A DNA stretch of 54,449 nucleotides from an uncultured Acidobacteriia bacterium. GTDB taxonomy: Bacteria > Acidobacteriota > Terriglobia > Bryobacterales > Bryobacteraceae. The notes under the pieces are model-generated. The model saw only the letters and a list, made by a program, of their open reading frames with translations, was not told where the DNA came from and made no database searches. Each line of letters starts with the position of its first letter. Within the stretch, counting starts at the first letter, position 1. Made by a program: the position numbers and the translations under genes. The stretch lies in assembly GCA_903929755.1 (NCBI GenBank), contig CAIYVZ010000138.1, forward strand, positions 1 to 54,449, given 5' to 3'. Below, one piece after another: positions 15,946 to 32,747 of this stretch.

Positions 15946-16296
15946 CTAACTTCGCGCCAGGCGCTCCAGAGCCTTCGTGCACGCCTGGATGAGAGGGCGC
16001 AGATCGCCCGTTACGATCTCCCAAATGTGATCGACGCCGACTTCATCGTACGAGTGGCGCAAGCGATTGCCCAGCGCCCGGATTTCACGCCAGGGCTGGT
16101 TGGGCAGGAGGATTGGTGCCTGGTCGCCCAATTTTGAGAACGCCTCGCTGATCCTTTCCAGACATCGTTCCACCGCGTCGTAAACGAGTTGGTTCTCGGC
16201 AAACGCCGTTGAATCCAGGTCCGCCGTGTAGCGCAGTATCGCCTCAGCGTTATCGACGATGTCCCGGAGACGCCGGGCGGGCTGGTCAGAAGGCAA
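15946..16296 (-). CDS. hepT: HepT-like RNase toxin (DUF86)
   Basis: A 116-residue all-helical protein with the HEPN-family RNase motif in GNRLRHSYDEVG (Arg-x4-His-x-Tyr type). Further family segments are DAVERCLERISEA and IRALGN. HepT is the toxin of the HepT/MntA type VII toxin-antitoxin system, in which the nucleotidyltransferase modifies the toxin's active-site Tyr. It overlaps the upstream MntA-like gene by 11 bp, the normal arrangement. All active-site residues look intact. Confidence 0.9.
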   Translation of the reverse strand: MPSDQPARRLRDIVDNAEAILRYTADLDSTAFAENQLVYDAVERCLERISEAFSKLGDQAPILLPNQPWREIRALGNRLRHSYDEVGVDHIWEIVTGDLRPLIQACTKALERLARS

Positions 16297-16591
16297 TTTG
16301 GCGGTCCCGGTCGATTTCGGACTGGAACTGGGCCCGGCGGACGGGCTCTTCCACTACGTCAACGACGCAGCCGAGCAATTGCGAGAACTGCCGCTCCAGG
16401 GCTTCGAGGCGGCCAAAGTAGTGGAAGCCTCCTTTTGAGAAGCCGGGAGAAAGGCGGACGGCGATGTCGATATCGGCGGGACTCGCTTCGCCGCGGGCCA
16501 TGGAGCCAAAAAGGGACGCGGCGGCGACGCCGGTGGCTCGAAGCTCCGCCTCGTGCGCCCGGAGAGTTTCCAGAACCTGGTTCCTCGTCAT
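16286..16591 (-). CDS. mntA: MntA-like nucleotidyltransferase antitoxin
   Basis: A 101-residue minimal nucleotidyltransferase with the signature GSMARGEASPADIDIAVRL, giving the GS motif and the Asp-x-Asp metal ligands. A TTG at 16627 extends the frame by 12 residues, but the ATG at 16591 gives the usual length. It precedes hepT and overlaps it by 11 bp. MntA enzymes neutralise HepT by adding AMP units to its active-site tyrosine. The third, distal carboxylate is likely in VVDVVEEP. Confidence 0.88.
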   Translation of the reverse strand: MTRNQVLETLRAHEAELRATGVAAASLFGSMARGEASPADIDIAVRLSPGFSKGGFHYFGRLEALERQFSQLLGCVVDVVEEPVRRAQFQSEIDRDRQIAF

Positions 16592-16647
16592 GTCCCTATT
16601 GTTCAGGAGGTTGAGCGGCGCAGTCAAGCTTTGTCACGGGAGGTGCC

Positions 16648-16722
16648 TATAATGGGGAATTCTTTCCACGAACTGGCCGCGTAGCTGGTTCGCTTTCGAG
16701 ATTCAACCTTCGAGATTCAACC
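16648..16722 (+). promoter_or_regulatory. Candidate promoter and tandem 14-bp repeat before the DUF2126 operon
   Basis: TATAAT at 16648-16653 is a perfect -10 box, but no good -35 stands 17 bp upstream (TTGTCA at 16631 is too close). Further down, TTCGAGATTCAACC occurs twice head to tail (16695-16708 and 16709-16722), ending 12 nt before the start codon and just before the AGGGAG ribosome-binding site. The tandem repeat could be a protein-binding site in the leader. Confidence 0.45.
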
Positions 16723-16734
16723 AGGGAGCCTCCC

Positions 16735-19700
16735 TTGCCGATACGCGTTGCGCTGCATCACAAGACGACTTACAAGTACGACCGGCTGGTCCAGCTTTCT
16801 CCCCAGGTGATCCGGCTGCGGCCGGCTCCGCATTGCCGGACGCGGGTGACGGCGTATTCGCTGAAGATTGAACCCAAGGGTTTTTTCATTAACTGGCAGC
16901 AGGATCCGCAGTCGAATTATCTGGCTCGGGTGGTATTTCCGGAGAAGGTGAAGCAGTTCCAGGTGGAGGTGGACCTGGTGGCGGAGATGACGGTGATCAA
17001 TCCGTTTGACTTCTTTCTGGAGCCTTACGCCGAACAGTTTCCTTTCACGTATGAAGCGGCTTTGGCGACGGAACTGACACCTTATCTGGTACCGGAGCCG
17101 ATGGGGCCTGAGATGCGGAAGCTGGTGGACTCGATTTCGCTGGAGAAGGCGAACACGAACGATTTTCTGGTGAGCGTAAATCAGAAGCTGCAGCACGTGA
17201 TCCGCTATGTAATTCGGATGGAGCCGGGGGTGCAGACGCCGGAACAGACATTGGGGTTGGGGACGGGGTCTTGCCGGGATACGGCGTGGCTGCTGGTCCA
17301 GTTGTTCCGGAATCTTGGATTGGCGGCACGGTTTGTGTCGGGGTATTTGATTCAGTTAAAGCCGGATCTAAAGGCGCTTGACGGGCCTTCGGGGACGGAG
17401 GAAGACTTCACGGATCTGCATGCGTGGACGGAAGTGTATCTGCCGGGGGCGGGGTGGATTGGGCTGGATCCGACTTCCGGGCTGTTTGCGGGGGAGGGCC
17501 ATTTGCCGGTGGCGGCGACGCCACAGCCTTCGGCGGCGGCACCAATTTCCGGGGGCGTGGATGAGTGTGAAGTTGAATTTGTCCACGAGATGACGGTAAC
17601 GCGGGTGCATGAAGACCCGCGAGTGACGCTGCCTTATACGGATAAGCAGTGGGCAGAGATTGAGGCCCTGGGGCATGCGATTGATGCGGAGCTGACGGCT
17701 GGCGATGTGCGGTTGACGATGGGGGGCGAGCCCACGTTTGTGTCGATTGACGACATGGACGGCGAGGAATGGAACACGGCGGCGATGGGGCCGAATAAGC
17801 GGCGGCTGGCGGGGGAATTGCTGGTGCGGCTGCGGGACGAGTTTGCGCCGGGGGCGTTTTTGCATTACGGGCAGGGGAAGTGGTATCCGGGGGAGCCTTT
17901 GCCGAGGTGGGCGCTGGGGTGCTACTGGCGCGTGGATGGCGTGGCGATGTGGCGGAATCAGGATTTGATTGCGCGGGACGACGTGCGGACGGCGTTCAAC
18001 CATGCGGATGCGGAGAAGTTTGCGCAGACGCTGGCGGGGCGGCTGGGCGTGGATACGGGGTATATTACGCCGGCGTTTGAAGATCCGCTGTATTACATGC
18101 AGAAAGAGCGGGAGTTACCGATAAATGTAGACCCGGTGGATAACCACCTGGAAGATGCGCGGGAGCGGGAGAGGTTGCGAGGCGTGTTTGAGAGGGGACT
18201 GCATACGCCGACGGGGTATGTGCTGCCGCTGGAACGGGCGCCGCGGGATGGGGCGAAGGGCAAGGATGGTCCGACGTGGCAGACAGGGATGTGGATGCTG
18301 CGGGGCAAGCGGGTATTTCTGCTACCGGGGGATTCACCGGTGGGGCTGCGGTTGCCGCTGTCTTCCCTGCCCTGGGTGGCGGCTGGGGAGGCTCCGGTGA
18401 GGAACGGGGTGGATCCGATGGTGAATCGGGGGCCGATGCGGCAGCCGTTGCGGATGACTCCGGTGCAGCCGCAGGGGGCGCCGCAGATGCAGAGGGAGGG
18501 CGCGCGACCGCAGGATCGGGAGCCGAAGCCTGGGGAGTCGGCGGCCTGGGTGGTACGAACGGCCTTGTGTGTGGAGCCGCGGGAAGGGCGGCTGCATGTA
18601 TTTATGCCACCGGTGGAGACGATTGAGGATTATATTGATCTGCTGGCGGCGATTGAGGATACGGCGGACGAGTTAGGCCAGCCGGTGGCGGTGGAGGGGT
18701 ACACGCCGCCGCAGGATCCTCGGGTGCAGGTTCTGAAAGTGACGCCGGACCCGGGGGTGATTGAGGTAAATATTCATCCGGCCGGGAACTGGGGGGAGCT
18801 GGTGCGGAATACTTCGGTGCTGTATGAGCAGGCGCGCCTGACGCGGCTGGGCACGGAGAAGTTCCTGCTGGACGGGCGGCATACGGGGACGGGGGGCGGG
18901 AACCATTTTGTGATGGGCGCGGCGACGGCGGGGGAGAGTCCGTTTCTGCGGCGGCCGGATTTGCTGCGGAGCATGGTGGGGTACTGGCTGAATCATCCGT
19001 CGCTCTCGTATTTATTTTCGGGGCTGTTTATTGGGCCGACGAGCCAGGCTCCGCGAATTGACGAGACGCGGCAGGACAGTTTGTATGAGCTGGAGATTGC
19101 GTTCAGTCAAATCCCGGAGCCGGGGATGGGGTTTTGTCCACCGTGGCTGGTGGACCGGATCTTCCGGCACATTTTGGTGGACGGAACGGGGAATACGCAT
19201 CGGGCGGAGTTCTGCATTGATAAGTTGTACTCGCCGGATTCGAGCACGGGCAGGTTAGGGCTGCTGGAGTTGCGGGGGTTTGAAATGCCTCCTCATGCGC
19301 GGATGAGTCTGACGCAGCAGTTGCTGGTGCGGGCATTGATTTCGTGGTTTTGGAAGCAGCCTTACAAGCGGGAGCCGATTGAGTGGGGCACGGAATTGCA
19401 TGATATGTTCATGCTGCCGCACTTTGTGGCGAAGGATTTCGAGGAAGTGCTGGCGGATTTAGGGGAAAATGCCGGATATAAGTTTGAACCGGCGTGGTTC
19501 GCGCCGCATTTTGAGTTCCGTTATCCGGTGGCGGGGGTGGTGACGCATCAGGATATTCAACTGGAGTTAAGAACGGCGACAGAGCCCTGGTACGTGCTGG
19601 GAGAAGAGCCGGCGGGGGGGGCCACGACGCGGTTTGTGGATTCGTCAGTGGAGCGGCTGCAGGTACGGGTGTCAGGGCTGGCGGGGAACCGGTATGTGGT

Positions 19701-20097
19701 GGCATGCAACGGGCGACGGTTGCCGTTGCATGGGGTGGGGAGTCGGGGGGAGTTTGTAGCGGGGGTAAGGTATCGGGCGTGGCAGCCGGCTTCGGCATTG
19801 CATCCGCTGATTCCGGTGCATTCGCCGCTGGTATTTGATTTGGTGGATACATGGACGGGGCGGTCAGTGGGCGGGTGTACGTATCATGTGTCGCATCCGG
19901 GGGGGCGGAGCCATTCGACGCTCCCGGTGAATGCGAATGAGGCGGAAGCGCGGCGGGGGGCAAGATTTAGTGATATTGGTCACACACCTGGGGCGATGGA
20001 GATTCCGCCGGCGGAGGAGAATCCGGATTTCCCGCTGACGCTGGATTTAAGGAGAGCGGTGCGAGTAAATGCGAGGGTGGCTTTTCAAGACATTTGA
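16735..20097 (+). CDS. Transglutaminase-DUF2126 protein
   Basis: A 1120-residue protein starting at TTG 16735, with AGGGAG 7 nt upstream. Residues 1-85 match the bacterial transglutaminase N-terminal beta domain. Residues 150-255 are the transglutaminase core with catalytic Cys180 (GTGSCRDTAWLL), His229 (DLHAWTEVY) and Asp245 (GLDPTSG). From about 325 to the end lies DUF2126 (LTMGGEPTFVSIDDMDGEEW, GQGKWYPGEPLPRWALG, then NHFVMGAAT, DRIFRHILVDGTGNTHRAEFCIDKL, LLELRGFEMPPHARMS). DUF2126 resembles amidoligase/glutamine-synthetase-like folds in published domain analyses. No signal peptide is seen, so it is probably cytoplasmic. The family is known next to permuted ATP-grasp and alpha-E genes, predicted to act on peptides or proteins. 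It is the first gene of a four-gene operon. Confidence 0.92.
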   Translation: MPIRVALHHKTTYKYDRLVQLSPQVIRLRPAPHCRTRVTAYSLKIEPKGFFINWQQDPQSNYLARVVFPEKVKQFQVEVDLVAEMTVINPFDFFLEPYAEQFPFTYEAALATELTPYLVPEPMGPEMRKLVDSISLEKANTNDFLVSVNQKLQHVIRYVIRMEPGVQTPEQTLGLGTGSCRDTAWLLVQLFRNLGLAARFVSGYLIQLKPDLKALDGPSGTEEDFTDLHAWTEVYLPGAGWIGLDPTSGLFAGEGHLPVAATPQPSAAAPISGGVDECEVEFVHEMTVTRVHEDPRVTLPYTDKQWAEIEALGHAIDAELTAGDVRLTMGGEPTFVSIDDMDGEEWNTAAMGPNKRRLAGELLVRLRDEFAPGAFLHYGQGKWYPGEPLPRWALGCYWRVDGVAMWRNQDLIARDDVRTAFNHADAEKFAQTLAGRLGVDTGYITPAFEDPLYYMQKERELPINVDPVDNHLEDARERERLRGVFERGLHTPTGYVLPLERAPRDGAKGKDGPTWQTGMWMLRGKRVFLLPGDSPVGLRLPLSSLPWVAAGEAPVRNGVDPMVNRGPMRQPLRMTPVQPQGAPQMQREGARPQDREPKPGESAAWVVRTALCVEPREGRLHVFMPPVETIEDYIDLLAAIEDTADELGQPVAVEGYTPPQDPRVQVLKVTPDPGVIEVNIHPAGNWGELVRNTSVLYEQARLTRLGTEKFLLDGRHTGTGGGNHFVMGAATAGESPFLRRPDLLRSMVGYWLNHPSLSYLFSGLFIGPTSQAPRIDETRQDSLYELEIAFSQIPEPGMGFCPPWLVDRIFRHILVDGTGNTHRAEFCIDKLYSPDSSTGRLGLLELRGFEMPPHARMSLTQQLLVRALISWFWKQPYKREPIEWGTELHDMFMLPHFVAKDFEEVLADLGENAGYKFEPAWFAPHFEFRYPVAGVVTHQDIQLELRTATEPWYVLGEEPAGGATTRFVDSSVERLQVRVSGLAGNRYVVACNGRRLPLHGVGSRGEFVAGVRYRAWQPASALHPLIPVHSPLVFDLVDTWTGRSVGGCTYHVSHPGGRSHSTLPVNANEAEARRGARFSDIGHTPGAMEIPPAEENPDFPLTLDLRRAVRVNARVAFQDI

Positions 20098-20131
20098 GGG
20101 GCATGGATTCGGGGGAGGGGGGCGATAAACG

Positions 20132-20161
20132 TTGCATTCCGGCTATTTCCGCCGTGATAAT
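20132..20161 (+). promoter_or_regulatory. Possible leaderless promoter for the embedded kinase
   Basis: TTGCAT (20132-20137) and GATAAT (20156-20161) are 18 bp apart. Transcription would begin at about 20168-20169, on the A of the ATG at 20169. No Shine-Dalgarno sequence precedes that ATG, which fits a leaderless transcript. Confidence 0.4.
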
Positions 20162-20168
20162 AGTGACA

Positions 20169-23100
20169 ATGGCTGACCCGCTCCAATTCAAGGCGTCCCT
20201 TGCACCGGAAGTCCAGGGACTGACACCAACTCTGGCCTTGATGCCGATGGCCATTCTGGTGACGAACCAGAGCGGCGAAGTGCTCTGGACGAACACGTGG
20301 CCGGAGGAACTTGCGGGGTATAGCGGGGCGCAGCTGGTGGGAGAGCCGGCGTGGAAGGCGGAGGCCAGCGCAACGCGGGACCGGGCTGCGGACAGAGTGG
20401 CGCAGGTACTGGAAACGGGGAAGGCCTGGAAAGGCGAGGTCCGCTGGGACGGGGCCGAGAGTTGCTATCTGGAGCTGACAATTACGGCAATACCGCAGGC
20501 AGCGGGAACCGCGGCACACGCCTTGTGGACGTTAAATAAGATCAGCATGGAAACGCAGGCCGTGACGGACCTGCAGAGGATGAGTGAGACGTTCAGCGCG
20601 GCACAGCGGGCGGCGGGGTTTGGCATCTTCCGGTGGAATATAAAGACAGGGAAGTGTGAGTGGCCGAATGAGATATATCGACTGTACGGACTGGACCCGA
20701 CGAGGGACGAGGCGTCGTTTGACAGCTGGTTGCGTGCCATTCACCCGGAGGACCGGGCGAAGACGCTGGAGTTGGTGACGAAGAACCTGCAAGATCCGGC
20801 GGTTCGGCTGGATATTTGCGCGAGGACTGCGGACGGGACGCGCTGGATTTCGGTTCGAGGGAAGGTATTTCCGGATGAGCACGGGAACCCCGAATACGCA
20901 GACGGGATCCATTTGGACGTAACGGAGCAGGTACGTCTGGAGACGGCGTTACGGGCGAGCGAGGAGAGGCTGGCGCTGGCGCTTGAGGTGGCGAGCGACG
21001 GGACGTGGGACTGGAACATTGCGACGGGCCAGGTGCATTTTTCAACGCAGTGGAAGCGACTGCTGGGGGCGGCGGAAGACGAAATCGGGGACGATTTCGC
21101 GGAATGGGAGAAACGCCTGCACGCGGATGACAGGGAGCGGGTATTCGCCGCGGTGCAGGCACATCTGGAGGGCAAGGATGAGCAATACATTGCCGAATAC
21201 CGGATCCGGTGCCAGGACGGGACATGGAAATGGGTTCTGGCGCGGGGCAAGGTAACGAACCGGAGCGCGGAGGGGAAGGCGCTGCGCATGGTGGGCGCGC
21301 ATACGGACATCAGCCGGCAAAAAGAGCTGCAGGATGAATTACGGAAACGAGAGGAACAGGCGTGGTCACTCGTTACGCATCTGGGGGAAGGGATTGCGTA
21401 TTGCCGGATGAAGTTCGAGGGCGAAGTCCCTGTGGACTGGCTGCACGAAGAAGTGAATTCTGCCTACGCGGGCCTGATTGGGCTGCAGGATGCGGCGGGT
21501 AAGTGGGCTTCGGAGCTGGTGCCTGAGCTGCAGGCGCGGTACCCGGAATTGTTGAAAACGTACGGAAGAGTTTGCCGTACGGGGACGCCGGAGCGGCTTG
21601 AACAGTTTTTGGAGCCGGTCCAGAAGTGGTATGCGCAGACGGTGTATGGCATCCCCCCGGACCGCTTTGCGGTGGTGTTCCAGAATATTACCGAGCGGAA
21701 GAACGCGGAACTGGAGCTGAAGAAGAGCCACGACTTGCTGTCGAACCTGGCGCGGATGGTGCCGGGCATGATTTACCAGTACCGGATGTATCCGGACGGG
21801 CGGGCGGAACTTCCGTATGTAAGCCCGGGAGTGTACCGGATTTTAGAGTTGACGCCGGAGAAAGTGAGTGGGGACGCGACGCCGGTATTCGAGAGGGTGC
21901 ACGCGGAGGATGCGGCGAGGGTGTTCGCGACCATTGAGCAATCGGCGCGGACGCTGGAGATGTTTTATTGCGAGTTTCGGGTGGTCCTGCCGGAGCAGGG
22001 GCTGCGGTGGCTGTTGTCACACGCGAAACCGGAGAGGACGGAAGACGGAGGAACGCTGTGGCACGGAATTTGTTCCGACATTACGGCGCAGAAGCGGGGG
22101 GAGCAGGAGAAGGAACGGCTGACGCAACAATTGATGCAGACGCACAAGATGGAGTCAGTGGGGCGGCTGGCGAGCGGAGTGGCACACGATTTCAATAATC
22201 TGCTGACGGTGATCCTGGGGTACAGCGGCTTTCTGCTGGAGGACCTGGAGCCGAACACTCGGCTGCACCAGTTTGCAGAGGCGGTACAGCGCTCGGGCGA
22301 GCGGGCGGCGAGCCTGACGCAGCAATTGCTGGCGTTTAGCCGGAAGCAGGTAATTGCCCCGAAGTTGCTGGATATTAATCAGGCGATTCAAGACTGGGTG
22401 CCGATGCTGGAGCGGCTAATCGGGGAAGATGTGAAGCTGCGAGCGGAGCTGGACGAGACGCCGCATTATGTGATGGCGGACCCGGGCCAGATCAACCAGG
22501 TGATTGTGAACCTGGTGGCGAACGCGCGGGATGCGATGCCGCAGGGAGGGGAGCTGACGATCGCGACTTCGACCAGGAACTTGAGCGCCAGGGAAGCCTT
22601 TGCGGTGGACCCGGACGCGATACCGGGATGGTACGCCATGGTGACGGTAGCGGATACAGGAACGGGGATGGATGAAGAGACGCGGCAGCAGATCTTTGAA
22701 CCGTTCTTCACGACGAAGAAGGTAATGACCGGGACGGGGCTGGGGCTATCGACGGTCTTCGGGATCGTGCGGCAGAGTAACGGCTGGATTGAGGTGGAGA
22801 GCAGGCGCGGAGAGGGAACGACGTTCAGGATCTATCTGCCGCAGACTGAGGGTAGCGAAAGGGAACAGCAGGCGAAGGTGAAAAAAAACGACGAAGCAGG
22901 GACAGAGACAATTCTGTTGATAGAAGACCTGGATGCGGTGAGGACCTTTACGGCGAGTGTGCTGAAGAGACAGGGTTATCGCGTGCTGGAGGCGATGGAC
23001 GGCGAGGAAGGGCTGCGGGTAGCGGCGGGGTACCAGACGCCCATTCACCTGCTGCTGACGGACGTGGTGTTGCCGGGGATGAACGGAAAGATGGTGGCGG

Positions 23101-23315
23101 ACACGCTACAGGCGCTGCATCCGGAGATGGCGGTGCTGTTTTGCTCGGGTTATACGGCGGATCTGATACAGCAGCGGGGTGTATCGAATCAGGAAACGGC
23201 GTTCCTGCAGAAGCCATTCCGGCCGGAGGACTTATTGAACAAAATTCGAGCGGTGCTGGGGGCGCAGCGGCTGCTGAAACAGGATCGGCCAAACCGAGAG
23301 AATGACGGCGATTGA
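20169..23315 (+). CDS. Multi-PAS hybrid histidine kinase with receiver domain
   Basis: A 1048-residue soluble sensor kinase from ATG 20169; an ATG at 20103 or the TTG at 20094 that overlaps the previous stop are alternatives. No transmembrane helix is seen. PAS-type modules at about 20-130, 140-255, 265-385, 400-515 and 525-640 show the WDWNIATGQVHFS and DGTRWISVRGKVF patterns, with PAC-like ends GIHLDVTEQ and VGAHTDIS. HisKA has the phospho-acceptor His673 in VAHDFNNLL. The ATPase has QVIVNLVANARDA, DTGTGMD and GTGLGLSTVFGIV. A C-terminal receiver has LLIEDLD, the Asp in LLLTDVVLPGMNG and Lys in LQKPF. Such kinases sense cytosolic ligands or redox state. The surrounding genes suggest it controls or is controlled by the transglutaminase/ATP-grasp pathway. 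Confidence 0.92.
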   Translation: MADPLQFKASLAPEVQGLTPTLALMPMAILVTNQSGEVLWTNTWPEELAGYSGAQLVGEPAWKAEASATRDRAADRVAQVLETGKAWKGEVRWDGAESCYLELTITAIPQAAGTAAHALWTLNKISMETQAVTDLQRMSETFSAAQRAAGFGIFRWNIKTGKCEWPNEIYRLYGLDPTRDEASFDSWLRAIHPEDRAKTLELVTKNLQDPAVRLDICARTADGTRWISVRGKVFPDEHGNPEYADGIHLDVTEQVRLETALRASEERLALALEVASDGTWDWNIATGQVHFSTQWKRLLGAAEDEIGDDFAEWEKRLHADDRERVFAAVQAHLEGKDEQYIAEYRIRCQDGTWKWVLARGKVTNRSAEGKALRMVGAHTDISRQKELQDELRKREEQAWSLVTHLGEGIAYCRMKFEGEVPVDWLHEEVNSAYAGLIGLQDAAGKWASELVPELQARYPELLKTYGRVCRTGTPERLEQFLEPVQKWYAQTVYGIPPDRFAVVFQNITERKNAELELKKSHDLLSNLARMVPGMIYQYRMYPDGRAELPYVSPGVYRILELTPEKVSGDATPVFERVHAEDAARVFATIEQSARTLEMFYCEFRVVLPEQGLRWLLSHAKPERTEDGGTLWHGICSDITAQKRGEQEKERLTQQLMQTHKMESVGRLASGVAHDFNNLLTVILGYSGFLLEDLEPNTRLHQFAEAVQRSGERAASLTQQLLAFSRKQVIAPKLLDINQAIQDWVPMLERLIGEDVKLRAELDETPHYVMADPGQINQVIVNLVANARDAMPQGGELTIATSTRNLSAREAFAVDPDAIPGWYAMVTVADTGTGMDEETRQQIFEPFFTTKKVMTGTGLGLSTVFGIVRQSNGWIEVESRRGEGTTFRIYLPQTEGSEREQQAKVKKNDEAGTETILLIEDLDAVRTFTASVLKRQGYRVLEAMDGEEGLRVAAGYQTPIHLLLTDVVLPGMNGKMVADTLQALHPEMAVLFCSGYTADLIQQRGVSNQETAFLQKPFRPEDLLNKIRAVLGAQRLLKQDRPNRENDGD

Positions 23316-25875
23316 GGCGGGCGAGGGCCTGAACTCCGCCTGGCGGTACACGCCGCGAGCTGGGTTCCACGACGAAATGTTCGCGGAGCCGGGGAAGACG
23401 CGTGCGCACTGGCGGGCACTGGCCGCGGTGATGAATGGGCTGGGGCCGGCGGGGCTGGACGAGCGGTGGACGGAAGGCCGACGGTTGCTGCATGACCATG
23501 GCGTGACGTACAACGTGTATGGGGAACAGGCGGACGGGGAGCGGGCGGGTGAGGGAGGGGCGGGCGGGGCGAGCAGGCCGTGGCCTTTGGATCCGCTGCC
23601 GTTCCTGATTGAGCCTGCGGAGTGGGCGGGGATAGAAGCGGCGATTGTGCAGAGGGCGACGCTGCTGGACCGGGTGCTGGCGGATATTTATGGTCCGCAG
23701 ACACTGTTGCGGTCCGGGAAGCTGCCACCGGAACTGGTACTGGAGCATCCGGGATTTTTGCGGCCGCTGTGGGGCGCGCAGCCTCCGGGCGGGCGCTGGC
23801 TGCACAGCTATTCGGTAGATATTGCGCGGGCTCCGGGGGGCAAGTGGTGGGTTCTGAGTGACCGGACGCAGGCGCCCTCGGGGGCTGGGTATGCGCTGGA
23901 GAACCGGCTGGTATCGCTGCGAGTGCTGCCGGATGTGTTTCGGGGCTGCAATGTGCGGCGGCTGGCGGGGTATTTCCACGGGTGGCGGGATGCGCTGCGG
24001 CGATTGGCTCCGAAGGCGGAGAATCCACGGATCGTGCTGCTGACGCCGGGCCCGCTGAACGAGACGTGGTTTGAACATGCATTTCTGGCGCGGTATCTGG
24101 GATTCACGCTGGTGGAAGGCGGGGATCTGACGGTAAGGAACAACCGGGTCTTTTTGAAGACGCTGGGCGGGCTGTTGCCGGTGGATGTGATTGTGCGGCG
24201 GCAGGACGATACGTTTTGCGATCCGCTGGAGCTGCGGCCGGATTCGATGCTGGGCGTGGCCGGGCTGGTGGAAGCGGTGCGGGCGGGGAATGTGGCGGTG
24301 GCGAACGCGCTGGGGTCTGGGGTAGTGGAATCGTCGGCGTATTCGGCGTTTTTGCCGGTGCTTTCGCGGCATATTCTGGGCGAAGAGCTAAAGATGCCGA
24401 ATATAGCCACGTGGTGGTGTGGGCATACGGCTGCGCGCGAGTGGGTTCTGGCGAATCTGAAGAATCTGGTAATAAAGCCGGCGTCTCCGGCGGTAATGTT
24501 TGAGCCTGTGTTTGGGGCGAAGCTGACGGCGAGTGGGCGGGCGGAGTTAGTGGGGAAGGTGCGGGCGAATCCGGGCGCATATGTGGCGCAGGAGCAGGTG
24601 GCGCTTTCGACGATCCCGGTGGTGGGCAAGGCGGGAAGCGGGGGCAAGCTGGAGCCGCGGCATTTGGTGCTGCGGGTGTTTGCGGCGGCGACGGGGGAGG
24701 GCTGGGCGGTGATGCCGGGCGGGCTGACGCGGTTCACTTCGGGAGCGGACAGCCTGGTGGTTTCGATGCAACGCGGCGGCGGGAGCAAAGATACGTGGGT
24801 GCTGGCGGATAAGCCGGAACCGGCGTTCAGCTTGTTGCGGCCGGCGGGCGCGGGGCTGGAAGTGAACCGGGCGACGTTCGATCTGCCGAGCCGGGTGGCG
24901 GATAACCTGTACTGGCTGGGGCGGTATGTGGAGCGGTTCGAGATGCAGGTGCGGGCGCTGCGGGCGGCTCCGCCGAGGCTGTATCAGGATGCGGATCCGG
25001 CGAGCCGGGCGGCACTGAATGTGTGCCAAAGGGTGCTGTCGAAGGCAGTGCATCTGGAGAACGAAACGCAGCCTTCGATGCTGACCGAGAAGGACGTGGT
25101 GGAACTGGTGGCGGGGGAGGACGACGCGGCAAAGCAACGGATTGGGCTGCGGGGGAGCGTGCGGGAGATTCACCGGATCGCGTGGCTGTTGCGGGATGTG
25201 ATTTCGACGGATTCGTGGCGGGTGCTGAAACAACTGGAGCAACAGTTTTCGGCGACGCCGGCGCCAGACGCGTTGCTGATGAACTGGACGCAGGATTTGC
25301 TGGACCGGTCCGTGCTTTCGCTGGCTGCGTTTTCGGGTTTGGCCACGGAGAATATGACGCGGGGGCACGGGTGGCGATTTCTGGATATGGGGCGGCGGAT
25401 TGAGCGTGCGGTCCAGACGATACAGCTGATCCGGCGGGGGCTGGGGTTTGATGCCCGCGAGGCGGAGTTGGGGCTGCCGACGGCGCTGGAGATTGCGGAT
25501 TGCTCGCTGACGTACCGGGCGCGGTACCGGAATACGATGCAGGCGGATCTGGCGTTTGATTTATTGCTGCTGGATGAGGGAAATCCGAGGTCGGCGGCGT
25601 GGCAGTTCGCGAAGTTATTTGAGCATGTGGAGCAGTTACCGGAAAGTCATCCGCCGGCGGGACATTCGCGCGAGGCTAAGGTGGCGCTGCGTATGTTGAC
25701 GGCGACTCAGTTAGTGGAGGCCGGGGAGCTGGCGAGGGCGGATGAGAATAAGCGGCTGGCCAGGCTGGATGAGTTCACGTTCCAGTTACTTATGGATGTT
25801 ACGACGCTGTCAGATACTTTGACGCGGGTGTATTTCACGCATGCGACGCAATCGAGGCAGATTTCTTCGCGATGA
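23302..25875 (+). CDS. Circularly permuted ATP-grasp / alpha-E fusion protein
   Basis: An 857-residue protein. Residues 60-480 are the permuted type 2 ATP-grasp region (DUF404/DUF407): YNVYGEQADG, RATLLDRVLADIYGPQ, GRWLHSYSVDIARAPGGKWWVLSDRTQAPSG, ENRLVSLRVLPD, VANALGSGVVESSAYSAFLP. From about 531 the alpha-E helical domain (DUF403) begins with SRVADNLYWLGRYVERFE and continues to RVYFTHATQS. ATP-grasp enzymes form amide bonds through acyl phosphates. Alpha-E is a helical partner of unknown role. The gene overlaps the kinase by 14 bp and the next gene by 4 bp, so translation is coupled. Separate genes occur in many bacteria; the fusion is also known. The substrate is unknown. Confidence 0.92.
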   Translation: MTAIEAGEGLNSAWRYTPRAGFHDEMFAEPGKTRAHWRALAAVMNGLGPAGLDERWTEGRRLLHDHGVTYNVYGEQADGERAGEGGAGGASRPWPLDPLPFLIEPAEWAGIEAAIVQRATLLDRVLADIYGPQTLLRSGKLPPELVLEHPGFLRPLWGAQPPGGRWLHSYSVDIARAPGGKWWVLSDRTQAPSGAGYALENRLVSLRVLPDVFRGCNVRRLAGYFHGWRDALRRLAPKAENPRIVLLTPGPLNETWFEHAFLARYLGFTLVEGGDLTVRNNRVFLKTLGGLLPVDVIVRRQDDTFCDPLELRPDSMLGVAGLVEAVRAGNVAVANALGSGVVESSAYSAFLPVLSRHILGEELKMPNIATWWCGHTAAREWVLANLKNLVIKPASPAVMFEPVFGAKLTASGRAELVGKVRANPGAYVAQEQVALSTIPVVGKAGSGGKLEPRHLVLRVFAAATGEGWAVMPGGLTRFTSGADSLVVSMQRGGGSKDTWVLADKPEPAFSLLRPAGAGLEVNRATFDLPSRVADNLYWLGRYVERFEMQVRALRAAPPRLYQDADPASRAALNVCQRVLSKAVHLENETQPSMLTEKDVVELVAGEDDAAKQRIGLRGSVREIHRIAWLLRDVISTDSWRVLKQLEQQFSATPAPDALLMNWTQDLLDRSVLSLAAFSGLATENMTRGHGWRFLDMGRRIERAVQTIQLIRRGLGFDAREAELGLPTALEIADCSLTYRARYRNTMQADLAFDLLLLDEGNPRSAAWQFAKLFEHVEQLPESHPPAGHSREAKVALRMLTATQLVEAGELARADENKRLARLDEFTFQLLMDVTTLSDTLTRVYFTHATQSRQISSR

Positions 25876-26732
25876 TTTACGAGACAGAACATGCGACGAC
25901 TTATCTGTACAGCGGACCGGTGTCGATCTGCCATACGGAAGTACATTTGACGCCTCGGTCGGGGCCGGGGCAGAAGTTACTTTCGCATAGTTTGGAGATT
26001 CGGCCGGAGCCGGCTTATTCGGTGACGCGGGAAGATTATTTCGGGAATGAGATTACGTGTTTTTCGATTCAGGAGTCGCATGAGACGCTGACGGTGATAT
26101 CGAAGAGCGAGGTGGAGGTGCTGGTGGAGGAACCACCGGCGCTGGAGTTGACACCTGGGTGGGAAGAAGTGCGGGACGAGATTCGGGGGCGGACGACGGA
26201 GGAGTTGTTCGAGGCGGCGGAGTTTACAGGGCGATCACCGATGGTGCGGGTGACGCCGGAGTTTGCGCGGTGGGCGGGGCCTTCGTTTGCAGCGGGGAAG
26301 CCGATTGCGGAAGCTTGTATGGATTTGACGCACCGGATTTTCAAGGACTTTCGGTATGATCCGCGGGCGACGACGATATCAACTCCGGTGGAGGAAGTGC
26401 TGAAGATTCGGGGCGGAGTTTGCCAGGATTTCGCACATCTGATGATATCGGGGTTGCGGTCCATGGGGCTGGCGGCGCGGTATGTGAGCGGGTATTTGAA
26501 GAGCGGGGAGAAGACTCGGGGGGCAGAGGCTTCGCACGCGTGGTGTGCGGTTTATTGCGGGGAGTTTGGGTGGCTGGAGTTTGATCCGACGAATGATTTA
26601 ATGCCTGGCGGGGAGCATGTGACGGTGGCTTATGGGCGGGATTATTCGGATGTTACTCCGGTGAAGGGTGTGGCGATTGGTGGGGGGGAACAGTTGATTC
26701 ATGTGAGTGTTGGGGTGGGGGTGCGGGGGTAG
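25872..26732 (+). CDS. Transglutaminase-family protein
   Basis: A 286-residue protein with the bacterial transglutaminase N-terminal domain (1-85, IYETEHATTYLYSGPVS) and a core with the full catalytic triad: Cys184 in RGGVCQDFAH, His222 in ASHAWCAVY and Asp238 in EFDPTND. No signal peptide is seen. It overlaps the ATP-grasp/alpha-E gene by 4 bp (ATGA) and ends the operon. The fold supports protein crosslinking, deamidation or, often in bacteria, peptidase activity. Pairing with an ATP-grasp ligase suggests one enzyme makes and the other breaks the same peptide or isopeptide bond. Confidence 0.93.
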   Translation: MIYETEHATTYLYSGPVSICHTEVHLTPRSGPGQKLLSHSLEIRPEPAYSVTREDYFGNEITCFSIQESHETLTVISKSEVEVLVEEPPALELTPGWEEVRDEIRGRTTEELFEAAEFTGRSPMVRVTPEFARWAGPSFAAGKPIAEACMDLTHRIFKDFRYDPRATTISTPVEEVLKIRGGVCQDFAHLMISGLRSMGLAARYVSGYLKSGEKTRGAEASHAWCAVYCGEFGWLEFDPTNDLMPGGEHVTVAYGRDYSDVTPVKGVAIGGGEQLIHVSVGVGVRG

Positions 26733-26769
26733 GGGGGGCGACGACACGAGGCGTTCGGAGCTGCCGCTT

Positions 26770-28284
26770 CTACGGTTGGGAGCGGAAGGGACTGGCGGGA
26801 AGGCCTTCGGTGTTGTAGAGGTTGCCGTCCGGGTTGTCGGCCCACGAGTAGCGGACCTGAACCGGTTCCGAGACGGTGCCGGTGGAGACAATCACGGACG
26901 CGCCGTCGAGCTTCGCGTCGGCGGGCACAAAGGTTCCGTTGGCTCCGGCGATTTCAAAACCATTCAGCGGGCCGTTCTTTGCCACCAGACCGCCGCCGGT
27001 TTGATCGAACCACACGCGCAGGGCTGCTCCGTCGCGCGAGACCTGCCGGTAGAGCGGGCCGGAGTAAGTGAGCTTTTCGCCATAGGCGACAGAGCGTGCG
27101 GCGAGTGCGAGCCGGAGGCCGACATCCTGCTTGTTGGTGGGATGGATGTTGGTGGGGTTCCCCACATCGATGGTGACGGCCATGCCCGTATTGGTCAACT
27201 GGAGGGTCTGGCGCTGGGCCTCGCGGACCTCAGGCCAGAAGGGATTGGCTTTGTAGTTGGCGAGTTGAACATAGAAGAACGGGAAGTCGCCGACGCCCCA
27301 GGCGCGCCGCCAGTCCTTAATCATGGCCTGGAAAGCACGTCCATAGATACCGGCAGCCTGCGGGGAAGCGTTGCTTTCGCCCTGGTACCAGATTGCGCCT
27401 TTGATGGCGAAAGACGCGATGGGGGCGATCATGCCGTTGTAAAGTCCGGCTGGCATCCAGGGGCCGCCAGGGTTGGTACCGGGGGCACCGGGCTTGTTCC
27501 CGGGGGCGGGTTTGCCTTCCGTTTTGACTTTCGCCGCCGCGTCGTTCCATTCGGCGAGGCGCTGTTCGTATCGCGCCAGAGCGAGGGGGTACGCCTCCAT
27601 AGAGCGGGCCCAGTTTGCGGTGATTTGGGACAGTGCGGGCTCCTCGCCGATGGCGCGAAGGCTCATCCATGCCTCCACGGGAGTTCCGCCCCAGAAGCTT
27701 TCGATGATGCCTTGGGGGATGCCGGCGGCGGAGCTCTTTTCCTGCAGATGGCGGGCGAAGAAGAAGGCGACGGCGGAAGCGCCGGAGGCGTTTTGCGGGG
27801 TGATGGAGGTCCAGCCCTGAGCTGTCATGTCTTCGAGGGGGTAATCGGCAGGTTTGCGGGTAACCTTGATGCGGCGAATGTTTGGGTAGTTGGCGGCGGC
27901 GATCTCGGCTTCGGCGTTGGTTACCTGGCGAAGCTGGAACTCCATGTTGGACTGGCCCGAGGCAACCCAGACGTCGCCGACGAGGACGTCAGAAAACGAA
28001 ATCGTGTTGGTGCCGGTGATCGTCAGGGGGAAAGGCCCACCGGCGTCACCTGGCGCGAGATAAAGGCTCCATCGGCCCAGAGTGTCTGCCTTTGTCCCCT
28101 GCGTGGAATTGCGGAAGGCGGCGCTGACGGCTTCACCGGGCGCGGCTTTGCCCCAGAGGTGGACGGGCACGCCTCTTTGGAGCACCATATGGTCGGTCAG
28201 AATTGCCGGGAGTGTAATCTCGGCTGAGAGGCTGGCGGCCAAGGCAAGGGCGGAGACAAGAATTCGGATTCGCATGGGACGCAC
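26770..28284 (-). CDS. Secreted sialate O-acetylesterase-like protein
   Basis: A 504-residue protein with a signal peptide (RIRILVSALALAASLSAE; ATG 28275 is an equally good start). The SGNH-type esterase block has nucleophile Ser in WVASGQSNMEF. IIESFWGGTPVEAWMS, IWYQGESNAS and the late HPTNKQDVGLRLALAAR carry the remaining catalytic residues. The N-terminal ILTDHMVLQRGVPVHLWGKAAPGE strand is typical of sialate 9-O-acetylesterases. In soil bacteria these enzymes mostly de-acetylate plant or microbial glycans. It is probably periplasmic and stands alone on the minus strand, convergent with the transglutaminase operon. Confidence 0.92.
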   Translation of the reverse strand: MRPMRIRILVSALALAASLSAEITLPAILTDHMVLQRGVPVHLWGKAAPGEAVSAAFRNSTQGTKADTLGRWSLYLAPGDAGGPFPLTITGTNTISFSDVLVGDVWVASGQSNMEFQLRQVTNAEAEIAAANYPNIRRIKVTRKPADYPLEDMTAQGWTSITPQNASGASAVAFFFARHLQEKSSAAGIPQGIIESFWGGTPVEAWMSLRAIGEEPALSQITANWARSMEAYPLALARYEQRLAEWNDAAAKVKTEGKPAPGNKPGAPGTNPGGPWMPAGLYNGMIAPIASFAIKGAIWYQGESNASPQAAGIYGRAFQAMIKDWRRAWGVGDFPFFYVQLANYKANPFWPEVREAQRQTLQLTNTGMAVTIDVGNPTNIHPTNKQDVGLRLALAARSVAYGEKLTYSGPLYRQVSRDGAALRVWFDQTGGGLVAKNGPLNGFEIAGANGTFVPADAKLDGASVIVSTGTVSEPVQVRYSWADNPDGNLYNTEGLPASPFRSQP

Positions 28285-28484
28285 TAATTCTATTACAGGT
28301 TAGGCGGAACAGTGGCGCTTCTGTGGCGCAGACTTGGGTGAGTTTCGTGAACTTGAGTGGCGAGAGCGACTTTGGCGAGCCGGGTACCGACTGCCGTGGG
28401 GGAACCCGGCGAACCGGCATGGCGGGCGCGGCGGAGCATGAAGTCCGCGGCGCGAATACGCAACGGGGTTGTCGCCCCCAGGGA

Positions 28485-28889
28485 CTATTGGACAGGGTCT
28501 CCGAAGGCAGATCTCAAATCAGTTTGAGAAAAGTCGTTCCCGATGAACAGCAGCGGCTCCCCGAGAAACCGGGCAAGGCCATAGGAAAAGCAGTCGCCGA
28601 AATTGAGGGCTGCCCGGTGTCTGCCCTTCCCGAAGCGGCGAAAGCCTTCTGTTGCAAGCTCTACGTGTCGCTCGGTGAGAGGCACAATCTCAATCGGCGT
28701 ATTCGCGAGCCATCGATCAAAGGTGATTGTCGCGGAACTGCCGAAGCGGGATTCGAGGACGATTCTGACTTCGAGGACTGAGGCCGTGGAAATCTGAAGC
28801 GACTGGGCCTCGTCCATTGCACGGATACAACTCTGTGCGGCGGGCTCCTCGGTCAGAATTGCTATTACCGCCGAAGTGTCAATCACCAT
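28485..28889 (-). CDS. vapC: VapC-type PIN-domain RNase toxin
   Basis: A 134-residue PIN domain with the acidic residues in place: VIDTSAVIAIL at the start, SVLEVRIVLESRFG in the middle, LNFGDCFSYGLAR and LLFIGNDFSQTD at the end. The first codon overlaps the vapB stop (TGATG), so translation is coupled. VapC toxins cleave tRNA or rRNA and are held inactive by VapB. The full acidic set and intact frame suggest an active toxin. It is the only undamaged toxin in this island. Confidence 0.93.
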   Translation of the reverse strand: MVIDTSAVIAILTEEPAAQSCIRAMDEAQSLQISTASVLEVRIVLESRFGSSATITFDRWLANTPIEIVPLTERHVELATEGFRRFGKGRHRAALNFGDCFSYGLARFLGEPLLFIGNDFSQTDLRSAFGDPVQ

Positions 28890-29143
28890 CAGGTTGGCAG
28901 GCCATTTTCGTCATAGCCGAGGATTTCATCGGCTGGCCGGGGATCGAGTACAGGGAGACGCCTGATGGTGACGCCGAGCTTTGCGAGTTCGGTACCGACT
29001 CCGGTACGGCGGCGTGGCAACTGATGTCTGTTCAGCCGTTCCCGAAGGGAGCGAACTACCGTTTCGGTGAGACTCTCTCCGGTAAGCGCCGCGAGTTGCC
29101 TGGCAAGCCGATCCGCCTCGTCGTTCTTGATGCTGAATGCCAT
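28889..29143 (-). CDS. vapB: VapB antitoxin (Rv0623/PSK-type)
   Basis: An 84-residue antitoxin beginning MAFSIKNDEADRLARQLAALTGES with the helix TETVVRSLRERL. This is the ribbon-helix-helix-like N-terminus of the PSK_trans_fac family. The C-terminus, ending PADEILGYDENGLPT, is the expected toxin-binding tail. It lies directly upstream of vapC and behind a perfect 12-bp palindrome. Confidence 0.92.
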   Translation of the reverse strand: MAFSIKNDEADRLARQLAALTGESLTETVVRSLRERLNRHQLPRRRTGVGTELAKLGVTIRRLPVLDPRPADEILGYDENGLPT

Positions 29144-29147
29144 CTAT

Positions 29148-29159
29148 CTAGAATTCTAG
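29148..29159. promoter_or_regulatory. Palindromic operator of vapBC
   Basis: CTAGAATTCTAG is a perfect 12-bp palindrome starting 4 nt before the vapB ATG. Toxin-antitoxin operons are usually autorepressed at such sites. Confidence 0.55.
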
Positions 29160-29194
29160 CATTAACCGGGATGGACCGGGGTAGACGCTACAGG

Positions 29195-29474
29195 CTACGG
29201 CGTCAACACAGAAAGCTCTGGAAAGACTTCGAAATCTCCGGTATTGAACGTGTAAATTCGGTGAATTCCATTGGCCTGCATGGTGGCGATGATTTGCAGG
29301 TCTAACACATTCCCGCCCGTGACGGGTCGGCGCTGCAGGAGTGCCATCCATCCGGCCACGGCGCGCACTGGAGTCGGCAGAATCTGGAGGCCGGGAAGAG
29401 AGATGCTGCGGCGCGCCTGCGTTCAGAGCGCAGGCCAGAACGTTGGCATCGAGAACGCCCGGTTCAACGGACAT
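29195..29474 (-). pseudogene. Broken PIN-domain toxin (internal deletion and frameshift)
   Basis: From ATG 29474 the frame gives a normal PIN start (MSVEPGVLDANVLACALNAG), then turns to nonsense. Another frame of the same strand resumes the family's end, NVLDLQIIATMQANGIH followed by RIYTFNTGDFEVFPE, and stops at TAG 29195-29197. The middle of the domain, with the central acidic residue, is mostly missing; the whole piece spans only about 93 codons against the usual 130. The toxin is almost surely inactive. Confidence 0.75.
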
Positions 29475-30647: not shown

Positions 30648-31946
30648 TTAGTTCACCGGGAGGGTAAAGCGGAGGAGGGCTCCGGGGTGGGCGTTTTCGG
30701 CGGTGATGTCTCCGTGGTGGACCCTTATGGCGCGGCGGGCGATGGCGAGGCCGAGGCCGATTCCTCCGGTGGCTTCGTCGCGGGAGGGGTCGGCTCGGAA
30801 GAAGGGGTCGAAGATGCGGGGGATGAGGTTTTCGGGGATGCCGGAGCCGTGGTCGCGGATGGCGATTTTGATTTGGGCCTGGTTGCGGTAGAGGTGGATT
30901 TCGACGGTGCCGCCGGGGGGCGAGTAGCGGATCGCGTTGCGGATCACGTTCTCAAAAGCGCGGTGGAGGAGTTCGGCGTTGCCTGGGACGGTGACGGCGG
31001 CGGATGAGGTGAAGGAGATACGGCAGTGGTTGGCTTCGGCTTCGACGGCGCAGTCGGCGGCGAGGTTTTGCAGGAGCTCGTTGAGGGGGACGTCTTCCAT
31101 ATCGACGGTGGCGGGGTCGCCTTCCATGCGGGCCATGTCGATGAGGGTTCCGACGAGCGAGGAGAGGCGCTCGATTTCGCGGCGGAGGCGGAGGGCGGAG
31201 GCGTCGCGGTCAGGAGTCTTGCGGACCATTTCGGCTTCGAAGGTGAGGCGGGCGAGGGGGGAGCGGAGTTCGTGGGAGACATCCTGGAGGAGTTGGCGTT
31301 CGGCGACGAGGAGGGTCTGGATGCGGTCGGCCATGGCGTTGAAGGAGTGGCCGAGGTTGGCGATTTCATCCTTTGATTTTTTGGGGGCGGGAGAGCGGGC
31401 GGCGAGGTCGCCCTGGCCGAAGCGATCGACGACGGCGGTGAGGCGGCGGAGGGGGGAGGCGATGCGGGCGGCGACGAGCCAATAGAGGGCGGCGACGGTG
31501 GCGAGGACGATGAGGTAGAAAGGGGCGAAGGTGAAGGGGGAGAAGGGCTGGCGGACGATGCCGACCCAGGCGTAGCGGCCGTCGTCGGAGGTGCGGGCGT
31601 AGATGAACTGGTCGTCCTGGCGGGACATCCAGCGGGGCTGGCCGCCCATGAGGCGAATGATGGCGGAGCGGTCTTCGCCGGTTTCGAGATCTTTGCCGCG
31701 GGAGTCAGTGAGGTGGTGTTCGACGGCGCCGGCGCTTTTGAGATCGGCGAGGTATTCGGAGAGGCGGGTGGGACCGCCGCCCTGGTAGGCCTGGCGTGCC
31801 TGGAGAAAGTGGAAGCTGTTATAGCGGTCGAGGCTCTCCATGAGGGGGCCGCCGATGACGCTGCGGGAGACCATGGTGAAGACGGCGAGGGAGATGAGGA
31901 GGGCGGCGACGGACCAGAAGATGATTTTGGCGGAGATGGACCTCAT
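30648..31946 (-). CDS. Two-component sensor histidine kinase (CpxA-like)
   Basis: A 432-residue inner-membrane kinase. Transmembrane helices at about 7-29 and 140-160 flank a periplasmic sensor of about 110 residues. HAMP at 161-215 (RIASPLRRLTAVVDRFGQGDL), then the dimerisation helix with His225 in QDVSHELRSPLARL. ATP-binding motifs: FENVIRNAIRYSP, IRDHGSGIPE, IFDPFFRAD and GGIGLGLAIA. The H-box and HAMP resemble CpxA-type envelope-stress kinases. It follows its response regulator with a 1-bp overlap (TAATG), so the two form one operon. The signal is unknown; envelope stress is a guess. Confidence 0.94.
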   Translation of the reverse strand: MRSISAKIIFWSVAALLISLAVFTMVSRSVIGGPLMESLDRYNSFHFLQARQAYQGGGPTRLSEYLADLKSAGAVEHHLTDSRGKDLETGEDRSAIIRLMGGQPRWMSRQDDQFIYARTSDDGRYAWVGIVRQPFSPFTFAPFYLIVLATVAALYWLVAARIASPLRRLTAVVDRFGQGDLAARSPAPKKSKDEIANLGHSFNAMADRIQTLLVAERQLLQDVSHELRSPLARLTFEAEMVRKTPDRDASALRLRREIERLSSLVGTLIDMARMEGDPATVDMEDVPLNELLQNLAADCAVEAEANHCRISFTSSAAVTVPGNAELLHRAFENVIRNAIRYSPPGGTVEIHLYRNQAQIKIAIRDHGSGIPENLIPRIFDPFFRADPSRDEATGGIGLGLAIARRAIRVHHGDITAENAHPGALLRFTLPVN

Positions 31947-32650
31947 TATTGGAGCTCTTCTTCCGCCAGCAGATAGCCTACGCTGCGGACGGTGCGGATG
32001 ACGATGCCGGCGCCTTCGGTCTTTTTGCGGAGGCGGCTGATGTGGACTTCGACGGCGCGTTCGAAGGGCGTGGCTTTGCGCTGGTAGAGCATGCCCCAGA
32101 CTTCATCGCGGGAGACGACGCGGCCAGCGGCGCGGGCGAGGATGTCGAGAATGTCGAATTCGGTGGAGGTGATGTCGAGGGGCTGGTCGGCGATCCAGAC
32201 GCGGCGGGTGGCGGCGCTGAGACGGAGGCGGCCGACTTCGGTGAGTTCGGGCTTGCTGGTGAGGGTGTGGCGGGAGCGGCGGAGGACGGCGGCGATGCGG
32301 GCGGCGAGTTCTTCGGGGCCGAAGGGTTTGGAGAGATAGTCGTCGGCGCCGGCGTTGAGGCCGAGGATGCGGTCCTGCTGGGCACCGCGGGCGGTGAGCA
32401 TGATGACGGGAACGGCGGAGCGGCGGCGGAGTTGGGTGAGGATTTCGAAGCCGTCGAGGCCGGGGAGCATGACGTCGAGGAGGATGAGATCGAAGGAGTC
32501 TTCCGTAGCGCGGGCGAGGCCGGTGGGACCGTCGTGGACGGCGTGGAGGGTATAGCCGGTGCCCTGGAAGAATTCGGCGATGAGCTGACAGAGACGGACG
32601 TCATCGTCAATGACCAAAATAGATGCGCTCTGGGGCTTTTCCTGTTCCAC
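31946..32650 (-). CDS. OmpR-family response regulator
   Basis: A 234-residue regulator. I start it at GTG 32650. The longer open frame upstream overlaps the divergent lipoprotein gene and has no coding character. The receiver domain has VIDDD, phospho-acceptor Asp59 in LILLDVMLPGLDG, the Thr of MLTARG and Lys in LSKPFGPEEL. The winged-helix output domain follows (LDITSTEFDILDILARAAGRVVSRDEV, then EVHISRLRKK and VRSVGYLL). It pairs with the downstream kinase. Confidence 0.94.
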   Translation of the reverse strand: MEQEKPQSASILVIDDDVRLCQLIAEFFQGTGYTLHAVHDGPTGLARATEDSFDLILLDVMLPGLDGFEILTQLRRRSAVPVIMLTARGAQQDRILGLNAGADDYLSKPFGPEELAARIAAVLRRSRHTLTSKPELTEVGRLRLSAATRRVWIADQPLDITSTEFDILDILARAAGRVVSRDEVWGMLYQRKATPFERAVEVHISRLRKKTEGAGIVIRTVRSVGYLLAEEELQ

Positions 32651-32747
32651 GCTGCTTTCAGTTCTACCGCATGTGGGGGTGAGGGTGGTGGAGGTGGGCT
32701 GGAGTTTAACAATTCTTGAGGGTGAAATTTGGTAGTATGCTGGGCTG

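What the first reader, a model, noticed from the sequence alone, without database searches (positions are those of the whole stretch)
16735..26732. Transglutaminase / DUF2126 / permuted ATP-grasp / alpha-E operon with an embedded multi-PAS hybrid kinase
Four genes are stitched together by overlaps (14 bp and 4 bp) and a near-contact. Two proteins carry a full transglutaminase triad (Cys180-His229-Asp245; Cys184-His222-Asp238), and one carries an ATP-grasp ligase fused to alpha-E. These families are known to co-occur and are predicted to make or modify peptides, but no product is known to me. The kinase between the first and third gene is not part of the usual set as I know it. It is soluble, with about five PAS-type modules plus its own receiver. 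This suggests a self-regulated peptide-tagging or crosslinking system gated by a cytosolic signal.
Basis: partly seen in the sequence, partly recalled or inferred. Interest (0 to 1): 0.8.

Follow-up and report, generated by a model that had tools for sequence, protein, structure and literature searches.

The report
Amide-ligase operon with captured sensor kinase
A widespread but poorly understood set of bacterial peptide-bond-forming genes has, in one small group of Acidobacteriota bacteria, picked up a sensor-kinase gene in its middle; the enzyme set is already described, while the kinase insertion is a local variant whose link to the enzymes is unproven.

Summary
Four same-strand genes lie at 16735-26732: transglutaminase+DUF2126, a soluble multi-PAS hybrid histidine kinase, circularly permuted ATP-grasp+Alpha-E, and a second transglutaminase. 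The enzyme genes are a known, widespread set, usually contiguous. The kinase is not part of it: none of 71 loci (at least one duplicate) with DUF2126 and ATP-grasp-Alpha-E on one strand has a detectable kinase between them, and the nearest relative without it (G016, 80% identity) has a 42-bp spacer. Nor is it an isolated accident: in G003 a 56%-identical full-length kinase lies 4 bp before the ATP-grasp gene (the contig ends before DUF2126), and G008 keeps a deletion scar joining the transglutaminase start to a kinase-receiver remnant. The three form one clade (100/99). The kinase is under purifying selection (omega about 0.26) but changes amino acids about five times faster than its neighbours. 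The 14-bp overlap looks like a stop-codon loss rather than designed coupling. Modelling places DUF2126 near glutamine synthetase/Dop folds, so the operon plausibly makes or attaches amide-linked peptides. That the kinase gates the enzymes remains inference; a passenger kinase is nearly as likely. New variant of a known kind; moderate interest.

The parts
16735..20097 (+). Transglutaminase (N region + core) fused to DUF2126; predicted GS-fold carboxylate-amine ligase domain
20098..20168 (+). 71-bp intergenic stretch between DUF2126 stop and probable kinase start
   Evidence: no promoter-like consensus site reported here by the scan
20169..23315 (+). Soluble PAS(4-5)-HisKA-HATPase_c-REC hybrid histidine kinase; H-box HDFNN from residue 673, candidate receiver Asp in LLLTDVVLPG from 961
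   Evidence: Pfam; motifs; orthologue G003 56% full length
23284..23301 (+). Old ATP-grasp leader (ATCTGCCAAACT in G003, G008, G016; changed here), now read as part of the kinase C-terminus
23302..23315 (+). 14-bp overlap of kinase and ATP-grasp genes, apparently from loss of the kinase stop present in G003
23302..25875 (+). Circularly permuted ATP-grasp (type 2) fused to Alpha-E
   Evidence: Pfam; PDB 3n6x E 4.4e-88; Foldseek 3n6x 1.3e-33, then glutathione synthetases
25872..26732 (+). Stand-alone bacterial transglutaminase
   Evidence: Pfam; triad invariant in 21 of 21
30648..32719 (-). Flanking HAMP histidine kinase (30648-31946) and OmpR-type response regulator (31946-32719); kinase conserved beside the operon in G003 and G008, no match at E<=1e-60 in G016
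   Evidence: not shown to act with the operon

Best explanation
The locus is a cytosolic amide-bond-forming operon of the already described transglutaminase/ATP-grasp/Alpha-E kind. Shown here: domain make-up, invariant transglutaminase triads, glutathione-synthetase-like fold for the ATP-grasp part, a GS/Dop-like fold for DUF2126 in a predicted model, and wide conservation of the three-gene order. Inferred: DUF2126 and ATP-grasp activate a carboxylate with ATP and join it to an amine to build or attach a peptide, and the transglutaminases transfer or cut such isopeptide linkages. In the ancestor of three related Bryobacterales genomes a soluble multi-PAS hybrid histidine kinase gene came to lie before the ATP-grasp gene (inferred from gene order, a deletion scar and a tree). 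Between the two species that still have it whole, it shows purifying selection while changing fast. The most likely role is a cytosolic sensor, made together with the enzymes, whose phosphorelay output adjusts use of this operon in this clade, through a histidine-phosphotransfer protein or regulator encoded elsewhere. Shared transcription, signal, partner and the act of gating are all inferred.
For: Three-gene core: 60 of the 129 loci examined have DUF2126 and ATP-grasp-Alpha-E adjacent on one strand, in records titled as Acidobacteria, Planctomycetes, Verrucomicrobia, Proteobacteria and others. Kinase recurrence: the G003 contig starts 55 bp before the kinase, then ATP-grasp after 4 bp and transglutaminase with 4-bp overlap. 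G008: transglutaminase start (window 16734-16914) joined to a receiver remnant (window 23145-23231; 88 columns, 76%, E 7e-11), then ATP-grasp leader and gene. One clade, support 100/99, 1 change. Kinase dN 0.347, dS 1.33, omega 0.26. Folds. A DUF404/407-DUF403-transglutaminase-transglutaminase cluster is in the NtrC/sigma54 nitrogen regulon of a Burkholderia (PMC5491218, passages), so two-component control of a relative of this set has precedent.
Against: The nearest relative lacking the kinase (G016, 80% identity) keeps open ATP-grasp-Alpha-E and second transglutaminase genes, so the kinase is not needed for the set. Kinase amino-acid change is about five times that of its neighbours (dN 0.347 against 0.076 and 0.065). 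No cognate regulator or HPt gene inside the operon. In G008 one deletion removed most of both kinase and DUF2126, so co-loss is one event, and mis-assembly of that draft genome is not excluded. G003 has no DUF2126 in its assembly. Nothing shows the kinase acts on these enzymes.
Confidence: 0.5

Rival explanations
1. Passenger kinase: the gene landed in the spacer, uses the operon's transcription, and serves an unlinked pathway. Bryobacterales appear to carry many such kinases, so a landing beside any operon is unsurprising.
For: First-look candidates for this kinase query: 94 in the own genome, 65-132 in its 18 congeners (candidates, not confirmed kinases). No kinase detected between the genes in the other same-strand DUF2126/ATP-grasp loci examined. 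Fast divergence. 14-bp overlap explained as stop loss.
Against: Kept at the same place and strand between G000 and G003, whose ATP-grasp proteins differ by 12%, under omega about 0.26.
Confidence: 0.38
3. Clade-specific signalling island: the hybrid kinase and the flanking HAMP kinase/OmpR regulator pair were gained together and form one circuit controlling the operon.
For: Both kinases are in G000, G003 and (hybrid kinase as remnant) G008, and both missing at this site in G016, where the transglutaminase gene is followed by the IspG gene.
Against: The pair is convergent to the operon and looks like a complete two-component system by itself; in G008 the pair stays while the hybrid kinase is lost, so it does not need it.
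Confidence: 0.08

Closest known systems
Transglutaminase / ATP-grasp / Alpha-E peptide-modification operons (Iyer et al. 2009, PMID 20023723; not held in the library, known here through passages of PMC5666114, PMC6376114 and PMC3597751)
   Same: Circularly permuted ATP-grasp, Alpha-E and transglutaminase genes in one operon; predicted peptide synthesis or protein tagging
   Different: Here ATP-grasp and Alpha-E are fused, DUF2126 is fused to a transglutaminase, and a hybrid kinase is inserted; no Anbu peptidase in the operon or found elsewhere in the assembly
Anbu operon (PMC5666114, PMC6376114; passages)
   Same: ATP-grasp, Alpha-E and transglutaminase partners
   Different: The only proteasome-family match found in the genome is HslV beside HslU
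Glutamine synthetase / Dop / YbdK carboxylate-amine ligase superfamily
   Different: About 8-14% identity in those rows, large extra segments, fused to a transglutaminase; active-site residues not mapped
CckA-like and other PAS hybrid histidine kinases
   Same: HDFNN H-box, HATPase_c, C-terminal receiver; best NCBIfam match is CckA (383.8 bits)
   Different: Far below the 1000-bit CckA cut-off, no transmembrane-like segment, different sensory half

Membership tests
Transglutaminase/ATP-grasp/Alpha-E operon | Circularly permuted ATP-grasp | tested here: met
   CP_ATPgrasp_2 511.2 bits; 3n6x
Transglutaminase/ATP-grasp/Alpha-E operon | Alpha-E | tested here: met
   202.5 bits
Transglutaminase/ATP-grasp/Alpha-E operon | Transglutaminase with intact Cys-His-Asp | tested here: met
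Transglutaminase/ATP-grasp/Alpha-E operon | Amide-bond ligase activity | not testable with these tools
   needs purified protein; a Yersinia ATP-grasp relative releases phosphate from ATP (PMC6376114, passages)
Anbu operon | Anbu Ntn-hydrolase in the operon | tested here: not met
   one PF00227 match in the assembly (97.89% complete), identified as HslV
Glutamine-synthetase-like carboxylate-amine ligases | GS fold in DUF2126 | tested here: met
Glutamine-synthetase-like carboxylate-amine ligases | Conserved metal- and ATP-binding residues | not tested
   many invariant acidic residues but not mapped onto GS
Hybrid histidine kinase | HisKA + HATPase_c + Response_reg in one protein | tested here: met
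   H-box HDFNN at 673
CckA | Equivalog cut-off | tested here: not met
   383.8 and 317.5 bits against 1000

The most novel reading that the evidence does not exclude
In one Bryobacterales clade a cytosolic multi-PAS kinase, perhaps with the flanking kinase/regulator pair found at the other end, has become the switch of an isopeptide-forming operon, giving a natural case in which the unknown signal and product of this widespread enzyme set could be read out by deleting one gene.
Probability: 0.2. Interest if true: 0.65.

Novelty: new variant of a known kind. Interest (0 to 1): 0.35.

Why it matters
The DUF2126/ATP-grasp/Alpha-E/transglutaminase set is found across several phyla and I found no paper giving its product. 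A clade where a sensor has been built into it, beside a close relative without it and one with a decayed copy, is a natural comparison set for finding what signal and what product go with the enzymes. The enzyme set itself is not new, and the kinase link is unproven.

Tried and rejected
Kinase as usual component: rejected; no kinase detected between the genes in 60 adjacent plus 11 gapped or re-ordered same-strand loci (gap contents of seven gapped loci viewed). The screen used profiles built from relatives of the window kinase at E<=1e-6; distant kinases could be missed. G003 (L144) was not among the 129; G008 (L180) was, as 'ATP-grasp only', and its short kinase remnant was not picked up by the screen.

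Overlap as translational coupling: judged unlikely. G003 ends the kinase inside the leader shared with G016 and G008; at the matching bases the window has no stop and reads on. That the window lost the stop, rather than G003 gaining it, is the simpler reading, not proven.

Nearby kinases in L086 and L054 as independent support: with 20 of 129 loci having some kinase or receiver gene, I treat these as compatible with chance; no formal test.

Direction of change: G016 lacking the kinase could be loss rather than primary absence. A gain on the stem of the three genomes is the simplest reading. In several congeners the two genes were not seen together (G010, G012, G015, G017, G006) or are re-ordered or split by another gene (G018, G002), so this junction is unstable in the genus.

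Foreign origin by composition: kinase GC 0.607 and GC3 0.757 do not stand out from the three enzyme genes (0.582-0.646; 0.668-0.771).

Promoter scan: 1 promoter-like site in 16400-26900 against 2.5 expected, none before the kinase; terminator-like sites 23 against 7.4, mostly inside genes, not used. Rfam at gathering threshold: none. tRNAs: none. Defence library: only a weak receiver-region match, 18.9 bits.

Foldseek hits of the DUF2126 model to diphtheria toxin chains (probability 0.05 or less) are chance. Absence of Alpha-E matches in the listed Foldseek rows is not evidence of a new fold.

Papers: DUF2126 gives 0 papers; DUF2126 with transglutaminase 0; hybrid histidine kinase + transglutaminase + ATP-grasp 0, all in the open-licence library only. 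Rv2566/Rv2567/Rv2569c, recalled as having the same domains, gave one paper, seen only in the listing. The rlo operon (PMC12239564, passages) has a membrane-bound inactive transglutaminase and a RimK-like ATP-grasp, a different system; PMC12096838 (passages) concerns a like membrane protein.

Full report
Observation. The window (a Bryobacterales genome, Acidobacteriota, judging by the titles of the nearest named records) carries four same-strand genes at 16735-26732. Pfam gives Bact_transglu_N + Transglut_core + DUF2126; PAS_4 + three PAS_3 + HisKA + HATPase_c + Response_reg; CP_ATPgrasp_2 + Alpha-E; and Bact_transglu_N + Transglut_core. The 14-bp and 4-bp overlaps are real. The kinase can start at TTG 20094, but ATG 20169 fits better, since the G003 kinase aligns from that Met; this leaves a 71-bp gap after DUF2126. 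None of the four shows a transmembrane-like segment.

The three enzyme genes are a known kind. Across 129 loci examined (71 from named genome contigs, 58 fetched from unnamed relatives), 60 have DUF2126 and ATP-grasp-Alpha-E adjacent on one strand, 11 have both on one strand but gapped or re-ordered, 4 on opposite strands, 25 only DUF2126 and 20 only ATP-grasp-Alpha-E within the fetched stretch, 3 neither above thresholds, and 6 are detected duplicates (at least one more duplicate pair went undetected). Some stretches end at contig edges, so 60 is a lower bound on linkage. The second transglutaminase usually follows ATP-grasp-Alpha-E. A separate three-gene set (ATP-grasp, Alpha-E, transglutaminase) lies elsewhere in the own genome (C175). 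The only proteasome-family match is HslV next to HslU, so this is not an Anbu operon. Published work describes ATP-grasp/Alpha-E/transglutaminase operons as a predicted peptide-synthesis or tagging system (PMC5666114, PMC6376114 and PMC3597751, passages), with ATP-dependent phosphate release by one ATP-grasp member and nitrogen-limitation control of a related cluster by NtrC in Burkholderia cenocepacia (PMC5491218, passages).

The kinase. Those listed mostly cover the HisKA-HATPase-receiver part, some reaching into the PAS modules (as far as residue 249); the one full-length match listed outside the window is G003 (56%). The sensory half alone is found at E<=1e-50 in 3 of 237 family genomes (window, G003 in full, G253 in part) and 2 of 399 class genomes (window and G003). 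In G003 the contig starts 55 bp before the kinase; ATP-grasp-Alpha-E follows after 4 bp and the transglutaminase overlaps by 4 bp. G003 has no DUF2126 in its assembly, so adjacency to DUF2126 there cannot be seen. G008 carries the transglutaminase start (window 16734-16914) with in-frame stops, joined to a receiver-domain remnant (window 23145-23231), then the ATP-grasp leader and an ATP-grasp gene with an internal deletion, then the transglutaminase. The simplest reading is a roughly 6.2-kb deletion in an ancestor that had DUF2126-kinase-ATP-grasp; draft mis-assembly is not excluded. G016, the next closest (80% identity), has 42 bp between DUF2126 and ATP-grasp and no kinase there. On an ATP-grasp-Alpha-E tree of 19 rows the three kinase-bearing or remnant genomes form one clade (100/99) with G016 as sister (100/100).

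Overlap and tempo. A leader ATCTGCCAAACT precedes the ATP-grasp start in G016, G003 and G008. In G003 the kinase stop lies at this leader's end; in the window the matching bases read CCGA, there is no stop, and the frame runs on to 23315, giving the 14-bp overlap. G000 against G003: kinase dN 0.347, dS 1.33, omega 0.26; ATP-grasp-Alpha-E 0.076, 0.81, 0.094; transglutaminase 0.065, 0.85, 0.076 (Nei-Gojobori counts, dS high, so rough). The kinase is thus a maintained protein, but changes about five times faster at amino-acid level than its neighbours.

Second signalling gene pair. The same three genomes carry a HAMP histidine kinase, with an OmpR-type regulator in the window and a receiver protein beside it in G003 and G008, convergent to the operon's end (window 30648-32719; kinase 87% identical in G003, 85% in G008). 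G016 has no match to this kinase at E<=1e-60 and goes from the transglutaminase gene to the IspG gene. Whether the two signalling gains are linked is open; G008 keeps the pair and lost the hybrid kinase.

Verdict. The enzymes are a known, widespread kind. The embedded kinase is a real, clade-specific addition, neither a standard part nor an isolated accident. Control of the enzymes by the kinase is plausible (about 0.5 with the wide wording used above) and a passenger kinase is nearly as likely (0.38). Interest 0.35.

Noticed in passing
window 30648-32719: HAMP histidine kinase and OmpR-type regulator, shared with G003 and G008 and convergent to the operon; absent from this site in G016.
   Followed up: partly
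window 26770-30610: About 3.8 kb (SASA-type carbohydrate-esterase gene, PIN-domain gene 28485-28889, ParD-like antitoxin gene 30308-30610) lies between operon and the kinase/regulator pair in the window; in G003 the gap there is 55 bp.
   Followed up: no
window 15946-16627: HepT-like and nucleotidyltransferase gene pair, a likely toxin-antitoxin module, upstream of the operon on the other strand.
   Followed up: no
L086:1764-8618: Alphaproteobacterial hybrid kinase of 2284 aa with 11 PAS_7 stretches, receiver and HPt, 226 bp upstream of a transglutaminase-DUF2126 gene on the same strand.
   Followed up: partly
L180 (G008:C17): Decaying copy of the operon: stops and large deletions in transglutaminase-DUF2126, kinase and ATP-grasp, while the second transglutaminase stays open.
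   Followed up: yes
L181 (G010:C66): A different hybrid kinase (49% in the kinase part), a receiver protein and another kinase lie in a divergent cluster within a few kb upstream of an ATP-grasp-Alpha-E gene that is apart from DUF2126.
   Followed up: no
L091 (G002), L183 (G018), L101 (G022): The junction between DUF2126 and ATP-grasp is also split by other genes or re-ordered in these relatives.
   Followed up: partly
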